Shown: piece by piece, positions 23,713 through 25,588 of the stretch | Position numbering within the stretch: position 1 is the stretch's first letter | How the letters are laid out: every line of letters begins with the position of its first letter | Origin: Gammaproteobacteria bacterium | GTDB lineage: Bacteria > Pseudomonadota > Gammaproteobacteria > GCF-002020875 | Assembly: GCA_013349825.1 (NCBI GenBank) | Contig: DUYW01000005.1 | Coordinates: forward strand, 1-32,064 | DNA length: 32,064 nucleotides | Reading direction: 5' to 3' | Program-made: the position numbers and the translations under genes | The notes under the pieces: model-generated | The model's database searches: none | What the model was told of the DNA's origin: nothing | The model's input: the letters and a program-made list of their open reading frames with translations, nothing else

Positions 23713-25043
23713 TCGATCAAGAGCAGAAGTTACTGGAAACACTCACACAACAGATTCTGGATGAAGCAAAGCGCCAGGGTGCAACAGCCGCTGAGGCGGG
23801 TAGTCAGGTGGATCAGGGGTATACCACCTCAGTGCGCATGGGTGACGTGGAGACGATTGAACACCATAAAGATCGCGGTATGGGGGTTACGGTCTATTTT
23901 GGAAACCGCAAAGGGACCGCGAGTACCAGTGACTTTTCACCGCAAGCGGTGCAACAGACGGTGCGTTCGGCCTGTGATATTGCACGTTACACCCAGGAAG
24001 ACCCTTATGCAGGGCTGGCAGATCCTGAGCAGTTGGCAACAGAGTTTCCTGATCTGGAGCTGAGCCAGTCTTGGTCTACAGGGGTGGAGGAGAGTGTGGA
24101 GCTGGCCAAGCGTTGTGAACAGGCGGCACTGGATTATGATGCACGGATTGTCAATTCAGAAGGGGGTTCTGTCAGTAGCCACCACTCAATTCGGTTCTAT
24201 GGGAACAGCAACGGTTTTCTATCCGGGTACGATGCGACTCGGCACGGAATCAGCTGTTCAGTGATCGCCCAGACCCAGGGGGCTGATGAGATGCAGCGAG
24301 ATTACTGGTATAGCTCGGCGCGTGACCCGGAACAGTTGGGAGATGCGGCAGAGATTGGCCGGCGTGCAGCACAGCGGGCAGTGGATCGACTCGATAGTCG
24401 AAAAGGGATGACCTGCCAGGTGCCGGTCCTGTTTGATGCAACCATTGCAGGGGGGTTATTAGGGCACTTGATTGGGGCGATTCGAGGTGGAAACCTCTAC
24501 CGTAAAGCCACTTTTTTGCTCGACCATTTAGGGAAACCTATTTTTCCTCAAGAGATTTCCATCTACGAAGAGCCATTGTTGAAGCGGGCCTCAGCCAGTG
24601 CCCCTTTTGATAGTGACGGGGTGGCTACACGTGCTCAAAATTTTGTGACCGATGGGGTCCTGTCCAGTTATGTGCTGGACAGCTATTCTGCGCGCCGCCT
24701 GGAGATGCAGACCACCGGTAATGGCGGAGGTGTGCGTAACTTGAGAATGACCCACGGGACGCTGGATCAAGAGGGGCTATTGAAGAAAATGGGGACAGGG
24801 TTGTTGGTTACCGAATTGATGGGGCAAGGGGTTAACACCATTACCGGTGACTACTCGCGTGGTGCTGCAGGTTTCTGGGTAGAGGGTGGAGAGATCGCCT
24901 ACCCGGTCGATGAAATCACCATTGCGGGTAATCTGAAAGAGATGTTTGGTTCAATTGTTGAATCAGGCGCAGATATCGATCCCAGAGGCAATATACAGGT
25001 AGGCTCTATTTTGATTGAACAGATGAGTATTGCCGGCGAGTAG
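23709..25043 (+). CDS. pmbA: PmbA/TldE metalloprotease subunit
   Basis: PmbA is the second subunit of the TldD/TldE protease and lacks the zinc-binding HExxxH motif; here too there is no such motif. Family blocks include [32 protein letters not shown], and a C-terminal [30 protein letters not shown]. Length 444 is close to E. coli PmbA (450). The ATG overlaps the tldD stop in ATGA. In E. coli the two genes are unlinked; here they form one operon. A MITE-like repeat follows a few bases after the stop. Confidence 0.96.
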
Positions 25044-25057
25044 CCGTTTAAAATTAG

Positions 25058-25253
25058 TAACGATTCAGCTCACCCCTGAAATCCGCCATTTCGGCGTTCA
25101 AAAATGGTCATTTACACGTGTAACACTACGAGCTATGCTCGCGGTCACCTAAGGATAAGCTCACATTTTCTGCCTTGAGCGGGTGAATTTCAGGGGCAAC
25201 CTGAACAGCTGCTATCAAATTCTTTAACCTTTTTCGTAACCTCTGAATCGTTA
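25058..25253. repeat. MITE-like element with nested inverted repeats
   Basis: This fills most of the 284-nt gap between pmbA and rpsT. Outer arms are an exact 11-bp inverted repeat, TAACGATTCAG (25058-25068) and CTGAATCGTTA (25243-25253). Inner arms are an exact 10-bp inverted repeat, CCCCTGAAAT (25073-25082) and ATTTCAGGGG (25187-25196). A perfect 12-bp palindrome TTACACGTGTAA lies at 25112-25123. TTAAAAT occurs at 25048-25054 and again at 25254-25260, abutting the right arm, and may be a target duplication, though it is AT-rich and 3 nt off the left arm. No open reading frame of note. It looks like a non-autonomous mobile repeat with a partly decayed interior. Confidence 0.65.
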
Positions 25254-25268
25254 TTAAAATCAACAGGT

Positions 25269-25300
25269 AAAAAAATGGCCGACCCGTAAGGGTCGACCAT
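25269..25300 (-). terminator. Rho-independent terminator of rpsT
   Basis: On the minus strand, beginning 28 nt after the rpsT stop, an 11-bp stem (ATGGTCGACCC pairing with GGGTCGGCCAT, one G-T pair) closes a TTAC tetraloop and is followed directly by a run of T's. This is a classic intrinsic terminator. Confidence 0.93.
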
Positions 25301-25327
25301 CTCTTATTCAGTTTTCCAAAGTAATAT

Positions 25328-25588
25328 TTACATTACACGGATCTGGGCATTCATCCGGCTCTTGTGACGAGCCGCTTTGTTGCGGTGAATGAGTCCATTT
25401 TTTGCTGCGATGTCCAGTGCTGAGGATGCGCTCTTGTAGAGAGCCTCTGCCTCTTCACGATTGCCGGATTCGATTGCAGCCAATGCCTTCTTGAGGCTGG
25501 TGCGCATCATAGAACGGCGGCCCTGATTGTGAGTACGTCTTTTGTCAGCCTGACGTGCACGTTTGCGAGCTTGTAGTGAATTTGCCAA
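25328..25588 (-). CDS. rpsT: 30S ribosomal protein S20
   Basis: S20 is a small, highly basic helical protein binding the 5' domain and helix 44 of 16S rRNA. The 86-residue sequence starts MANSLQARKRARQADKRR and contains RSMMRTSLKKALAAI and LIHRNKAARHKSRM, all standard for S20. The start codon is TTG (25588-25586), with a strong AGGAG ribosome-binding site 6 nt upstream; E. coli rpsT also starts with UUG, and there the weak start is part of autoregulation. The gene has its own promoter and terminator and is divergent from murJ, the usual gammaproteobacterial arrangement. Confidence 0.98.
   Translation of the reverse strand: MANSLQARKRARQADKRRTHNQGRRSMMRTSLKKALAAIESGNREEAEALYKSASSALDIAAKNGLIHRNKAARHKSRMNAQIRVM

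What the first reader, a model, noticed from the sequence alone, without database searches (positions are those of the whole stretch)
25048..25260. MITE-like element between pmbA and rpsT
Two nested exact inverted repeats (11 and 10 bp), a central 12-bp palindrome and possible 7-bp flanking duplication TTAAAAT mark a non-autonomous mobile repeat inserted 4-14 nt after the pmbA stop and upstream of the rpsT terminator. The left half (GCCATTTCGGCGTTC and following) has no matching right half, so the interior seems decayed or recombined.
Basis: seen in the sequence. Interest (0 to 1): 0.5.

Follow-up and report, generated by a model that had tools for sequence, protein, structure and literature searches.

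The report
Jumping DNA hairpin borrowing an IS66 transposase
A 198-base piece of DNA between two genes is one copy of a small parasitic element that carries no gene of its own and almost certainly jumps by borrowing the transposase of a larger mobile element (IS66 type) living in the same genome; it is a well-made new example of a familiar kind.

Summary
With tools the borders move slightly. The element is window 25057-25254 (198 bp), ends GTAACGATTCAG / CTGAATCGTTAT, flanked by an 8-bp target duplication TAAAATTA / TAAAATCA (7 of 8), not the proposed 7-bp TTAAAAT. The same genome holds 13 places with family members. Across fetched loci, 105 of 244 end pairs carry an 8-bp duplication (7/8 or better) against 0.9 expected from shuffled partners. 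Three copies sit in other repeats whose uninterrupted paralogues show the exact empty site. The likely source of mobility was found: IS66-family (ISBst12-group, single-ORF) elements share the ends. In this genome, 13 contig ends carry IS66 termini beginning GTAACTATTCAG, and three left/right pairs match by exact 8-bp duplications (0.0006 expected). Complete IS66 elements with similar ends and exact 8-bp duplications exist in the same class. The interior is not decayed: it is an imperfect hairpin with double-sided changes at 5 of 22 pairs. Most likely a non-autonomous element moved in trans by the resident IS66 transposase; the local copy looks like neutral intergenic cargo. New member of a known kind.

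The parts
25057..25254 (+). MITE copy, 198 bp, 5'-GTAACGATTCAG ... CTGAATCGTTAT-3', no ORF of 60 aa or more inside
   Evidence: (matches a 198-nt family sequence over positions 1-197 at 95%)
25049..25056 (.). left copy of the 8-bp target-site duplication, TAAAATTA
25255..25262 (.). right copy of the 8-bp target-site duplication, TAAAATCA (one mismatch)
25057..25068 (+). left terminal inverted repeat GTAACGATTCAG (family consensus GTAACTATTCAG)
25243..25254 (-). right (outer) terminal inverted repeat, ATAACGATTCAG on the minus strand
25073..25082 (+). left arm of inner hairpin stem, CCCCTGAAAT
   Evidence: double-sided changes in relatives
25187..25196 (+). right arm of inner hairpin stem, ATTTCAGGGG
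25201..25212 (+). inner, second right-end-like repeat (CTGAACAGCTGC here; CTGAACAGTTAC in the 152-bp consensus), rarely used as an end
   Evidence: end use counted

Best explanation
The sequence is a non-autonomous miniature transposable element (MITE). It carries the terminal inverted repeats of an IS66-family, ISBst12-group insertion sequence (GTAACTATTCAG consensus), no gene, and a hairpin-forming interior that shares nothing evident with the IS beyond the ends. The IS66 DDE transposase made by IS copies resident in the same genome recognises these ends and inserts the element into new places, duplicating 8 bp of target. Shown from sequence: ends, duplications, copy number, empty sites for relatives, resident IS termini with the same ends and duplications. 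Inferred: mobilisation in trans by that transposase. At this locus the copy sits in the gap between the convergent genes pmbA and rpsT, with no sign of a function for the host.
For: 13 places in the own genome. 81 of 244 end pairs have an exact duplication of 8 bp and at most 1 of 244 an exact one at 5-7 or 9-13 bp; 105 of 244 at 7/8 or better against a shuffled mean of 0.9, maximum 5 of 244. Precise empty sites for three copies, gapless alignments of 120-126 nt across the rejoined site. Two identical 73-bp deletion derivatives at different sites with different duplications (TATTATTT, CTATCTAT), so a transposase-less derivative seems to have moved after it formed. IS66 termini with the same 12-bp end at 13 contig ends of the own genome; 3 of 40 left/right combinations share an exact 8-bp flank, 0.0006 expected. 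IS66 transposase (PF03050) directly inside these ends in genus mate G003 and others. Complete elements: L304, 1722 bp, ends GTAACCATTCAG, exact duplication AATTTTTT, 483-aa PF03050 protein 67% identical over 95 aa to the G003 fragment; further exact duplications in L307, L308, L309, L310. A published ISBst12-group IS66 element, ISDge4, has ends GTGACTACTCAGCA / GTAACTGCTCAGCA, an 8-bp duplication and one 449-aa transposase (PMC12898284, passages).
Against: No complete transposase gene is in the own assembly: the PF03050 search found one 48-position fragment and the protein search only contig-end pieces of about 31 aa plus that fragment; the middle of the IS is missing, which I read as a collapsed repeat. 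MITE and IS share only about 12 bp, so descent by internal deletion is not shown. Transposition in trans was not tested. The window copy has a mismatch in its duplication, both its ends differ from the resident IS at position 6 (G/C for T/A), and no empty site exists for it because pmbA-rpsT adjacency was not found in relatives. Of 10 fetched IS66 regions 5 gave no exact duplication (L302, L303, L305, L306, L311).
Confidence: 0.92

Rival explanations
1. A MITE moved by a different transposase family that also makes 8-bp duplications and shares the ends by convergence.
For: MITE and IS interiors share nothing evident beyond the ends; no full transposase in the own assembly.
Against: The same 12-bp end flanks IS66 transposase pieces in the own genome, in G003, G004, HyVt-486 and S140_32, with the same 8-bp duplication in the own genome.
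Confidence: 0.05
2. A repeat kept by selection as an RNA or DNA hairpin (terminator, RNA processing or insulator between convergent genes), its mobility being history.
For: Imperfect full-length hairpin, z -3.0; 464 of 474 cells paired and double-sided changes at 5 of 22 pairs over 22 aligned members; sites avoid long open frames (13 of 90 with >= 200 codons against 61% of control positions).
Against: Palindromes with double-sided changes could also arise if transposition or end-to-end exchange favours symmetry; avoidance of open frames is expected from selection on genes. No terminator-like site was found in the element and no Rfam family in the window. Not present at this locus in relatives.
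Confidence: 0.03
3. Ordinary intergenic DNA with chance inverted repeats.
For: Single inverted repeats of 10-11 bp do occur by chance in 32 kb (general knowledge).
Against: Multi-copy with duplications and empty sites.
Confidence: 0.005

Closest known systems
ISBst12 group of the IS66 family, e.g. ISDge4 of Deinococcus geothermalis (PMC12898284, passages read)
   Same: Single-ORF transposase of about 450-490 aa in the presumed partner, ends of the GTAACTxxTCAG type, 8-bp duplication
   Different: The window element has no gene and is 198 bp; it uses the ends only
MITEPsy1 of Pseudomonas syringae (PMC3189936, passages read)
   Same: Short, no gene, inverted ends, multi-copy; movement shown there in vivo
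   Different: Linked there to ISPsy2 (listed as 'IS5?'), not IS66; 100 bp
MITECca01 of Cardinium (PMC9769881, passages read)
   Same: Lineage-specific MITE with ends of a resident IS
   Different: IS982-family parent; keeps some parental sequence inside the ends
MITEs of Candidatus Thiomargarita nelsonii (PMC4853749, passages read)
   Same: Abundant MITEs, some folding into long hairpins, in a sulfur bacterium
   Different: The hupL type has 10-bp direct and 19-bp inverted repeats; no parental IS family was identified there

Membership tests
MITE (non-autonomous IS-derived element) | Short (below about 300 bp), no transposase gene | tested here: met
   198 bp, no ORF of 60 aa or more inside
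MITE (non-autonomous IS-derived element) | Terminal inverted repeats | tested here: met
   11 of 12 terminal bases exact
MITE (non-autonomous IS-derived element) | Target-site duplication | tested here: met
   Window copy 7 of 8; family 81 of 244 pairs exact at 8 bp
MITE (non-autonomous IS-derived element) | Multiple dispersed copies | tested here: met
   13 places in the own genome; 5 distinct copies there with full ends and duplication
MITE (non-autonomous IS-derived element) | Ends shared with an autonomous element in the same genome | tested here: met
   13 IS66-terminus contig ends with GTAACTATTCAG; the middle of that IS is not in the assembly
MITE (non-autonomous IS-derived element) | Mobilised in trans | not testable with these tools
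   Inferred from ends, duplication length and the spread of 73-bp derivatives
IS66 family, ISBst12 group (for the presumed partner) | PF03050 transposase in a single-ORF element | tested here: met
   L304 and L307: one ORF of 483 aa inside 1722 and 1711 bp; in the own genome only the two termini are assembled
IS66 family, ISBst12 group (for the presumed partner) | 8-bp duplication and GTAA-type ends | tested here: met
   definition from PMC12898284 and PMC3281130 passages

The most novel reading that the evidence does not exclude
The conserved hairpin and the doubled right end are working parts: the IS66 transposase, or the replication step it uses, requires or prefers the folded strand, and the inner right end is a second, alternative cleavage site. 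That would make this MITE a handle on the poorly known IS66 mechanism. The window copy's matching change at position 6 of both ends would then reflect homogenisation or a differently tuned transposase.
Probability: 0.12. Interest if true: 0.55.

Novelty: new member of a known kind. Interest (0 to 1): 0.3.

Why it matters
MITEs tied to the IS66 family seem little described: searches of the held library for MITE with IS66 gave 8 papers and for IS66 with non-autonomous and MITEs 3; in the passages I opened I saw no IS66-derived MITE, and a 2024 review of prokaryotic MITEs does not mention IS66. The end sequence GTAACTATTCAG occurs in no held paper. This does not cover most subscription journals or ISfinder. 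The family is abundant in uncultured gammaproteobacterial assemblies and would otherwise be read as intergenic noise.

Tried and rejected
Rfam search of the window: 0 families. Viral contig scan for the left end: 0. An IS21-type origin of the interior was a first thought from memory and was dropped: no data supported it, and the IS66 link explains the ends. Empty-site test at the window's own locus: not possible, since tblastn found rpsT next to pmbA only in the own genome among 6 loci; four of the five relatives had at least 1500 nt after pmbA without rpsT, the fifth (L265) only 380 nt. Empty-site alignments other than the three shown were not examined closely (several are gapped or lie in mixed repeats) and are not used. 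The promoter-like site at 25111-25139 was not pursued: 3 such sites were found in the region against a shuffled mean of 1.1. The end-like match at window 3913 lies in what reads as coding sequence and has no partner nearby.

Counting notes. The 244 end pairs include the same left end paired with the inner and with the outer right end, which is why 101 pairs of 121 bp have only 3 duplications while 75 pairs of 152 bp have 59. For the structure count, 22 elements from 20 loci named by me were taken out of 99 eligible; relatedness is not removed. The control is 20 random positions per site in the same locus.

Full report
What is there. The window region holds a 198-bp element at 25057-25254 with ends GTAACGATTCAG and, reversed, ATAACGATTCAG, flanked by TAAAATTA and TAAAATCA. 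The folded strand is more stable than shuffles (RNA parameters z -3.0; DNA parameters z -2.41).

Copies in the same genome. The own genome (2.87 Mb, 274 contigs) gives 16 rows at E below 0.001 that fall in 13 places. Five distinct copies have both ends and an 8-bp duplication: the window copy, C8 (198 bp, AAAACAGC), C27 (120 bp, CTAGATTT), C139 and C49 (73 bp each, TATTATTT and CTATCTAT). The two 73-bp copies are identical inside and have lost the hairpin, the loss joining two CCTGAA-containing stretches; since they sit at two sites with two duplications, the gene-less derivative moved after it formed, or the same deletion happened twice.

Copies elsewhere. All 5 other genomes of the genus have a match at E <= 0.001; with the 152-bp consensus at E <= 1e-6 it is 2 of 5, G003 with 25 matches. 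A scan of GTDB contigs for the left end stopped at its limit with 119 stretches, mostly unclassified gammaproteobacterial MAGs. IMG/VR: none. Over all loci, duplications are sharply 8 bp: exact matches in 81 of 244 pairs at 8 bp, against 0-1 at 5-7 and 9-13 bp. The common size is 152 bp (59 of 105 with duplication).

Empty sites. Removing element plus one duplication gives flanks that align without gap to uninterrupted paralogous repeats: L072 to L136 (122/126), L165 to L146 (117/121), L094 to L115 (111/120).

The partner. IS66 transposase fragments (PF03050) in relatives lie directly inside the same ends: G003 (L193), HyVt-486 (L194), S140_32 (L195). In the own genome exact GTAACTATTCAG occurs 30 times, against 0 for the reversed control pattern. 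Thirteen of these lie about 93-101 nt from a contig end and read into two common sequences: eight a left IS end, five a right IS end encoding the last 31 or so residues of the transposase. Three left/right pairs carry the same 8-bp flank (TACACTTT, TAAATAAT, TCTTAAAC); 0.0006 expected in 40 combinations. I read this as a multi-copy IS broken up in a short-read assembly. In 369 genomes of the class, 23 have a relative of the G003 fragment at E <= 1e-15, G003 itself included. Of ten regions fetched, five show an element with exact 8-bp duplication: L304 (GTAACCATTCAG ends, 1722 bp), L307 (1711), L308 (1865), L309 (1709), L310 (1699), the last four with GTAACTACTC-type ends; L307 and L308 are from one genome. 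L304 and L307 each hold one 483-aa PF03050 protein. The L304 protein is 67% identical to the G003 C-terminal piece over 95 aa and 50% to the S140_32 N-terminal piece over 246 aa. This matches the ISBst12 group as described for ISDge4 (PMC12898284, passages).

The interior. In 22 members (20 loci, my choice from 99 eligible elements) RNAalifold finds 22 consensus pairs, 464 of 474 cells standard, double-sided changes at 5 pairs, for example CCCCTGAAAT/ATTTCAGGGG against CCTCTAAAAT/ATTTTAGAGG in G003. The hairpin is thus kept, but the events are few and the copies related. Inside the outer right end lies a second end-like repeat; it served as the end in 3 of 101 pairs of 121 bp, the outer one in 59 of 75 pairs of 152 bp.

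The locus. Rejoined insertion sites lie in open frames of at least 200 codons in 13 of 90 cases against 61% of control positions, so surviving copies are mostly between genes. Here the site is between convergent pmbA and rpsT, an adjacency not seen in the relatives. I see no evidence of a host function.

Verdict. MITE of the IS66/ISBst12 type: structure and past mobility shown, trans-mobilisation inferred. Ordinary in kind, new as a member; the maintained hairpin and doubled right end are the only parts that might surprise.

Noticed in passing
window 25062 and 25249 (position 6 of both ends): Both ends of the window copy carry G/C where 104 of 112 listed members carry T/A: a matching change at both ends. 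A few relatives have it at one or both ends (L129, L170, L089).
   Followed up: partly
G000 C54:4811-4888 (L228), also L003, L033, L038, L232: A second small repeat type with the same or similar ends but another interior (GAAGCGAAGTAACACCCCTGGG-like), so the IS66 ends may serve more than one MITE type in this genome.
   Followed up: no
L072:2721, L075:2802, L094:1725 and others: Another dispersed repeat with AGTACTCNNTCAAGGTAA at one end, 31 matches with up to one mismatch in the genome-contig loci; the three MITE copies used for the empty-site test lie beside such an end.
   Followed up: no
L195:1719-2696: The S140_32 IS66 transposase frame breaks off and a frame resembling a REP-associated tyrosine transposase follows (name recalled, not searched).
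   Followed up: no
window 25043-25331: pmbA and rpsT are neighbours only in this genome among the loci compared, so the MITE lies in a lineage-specific junction; its duplication suggests it came in after the junction formed.
   Followed up: partly
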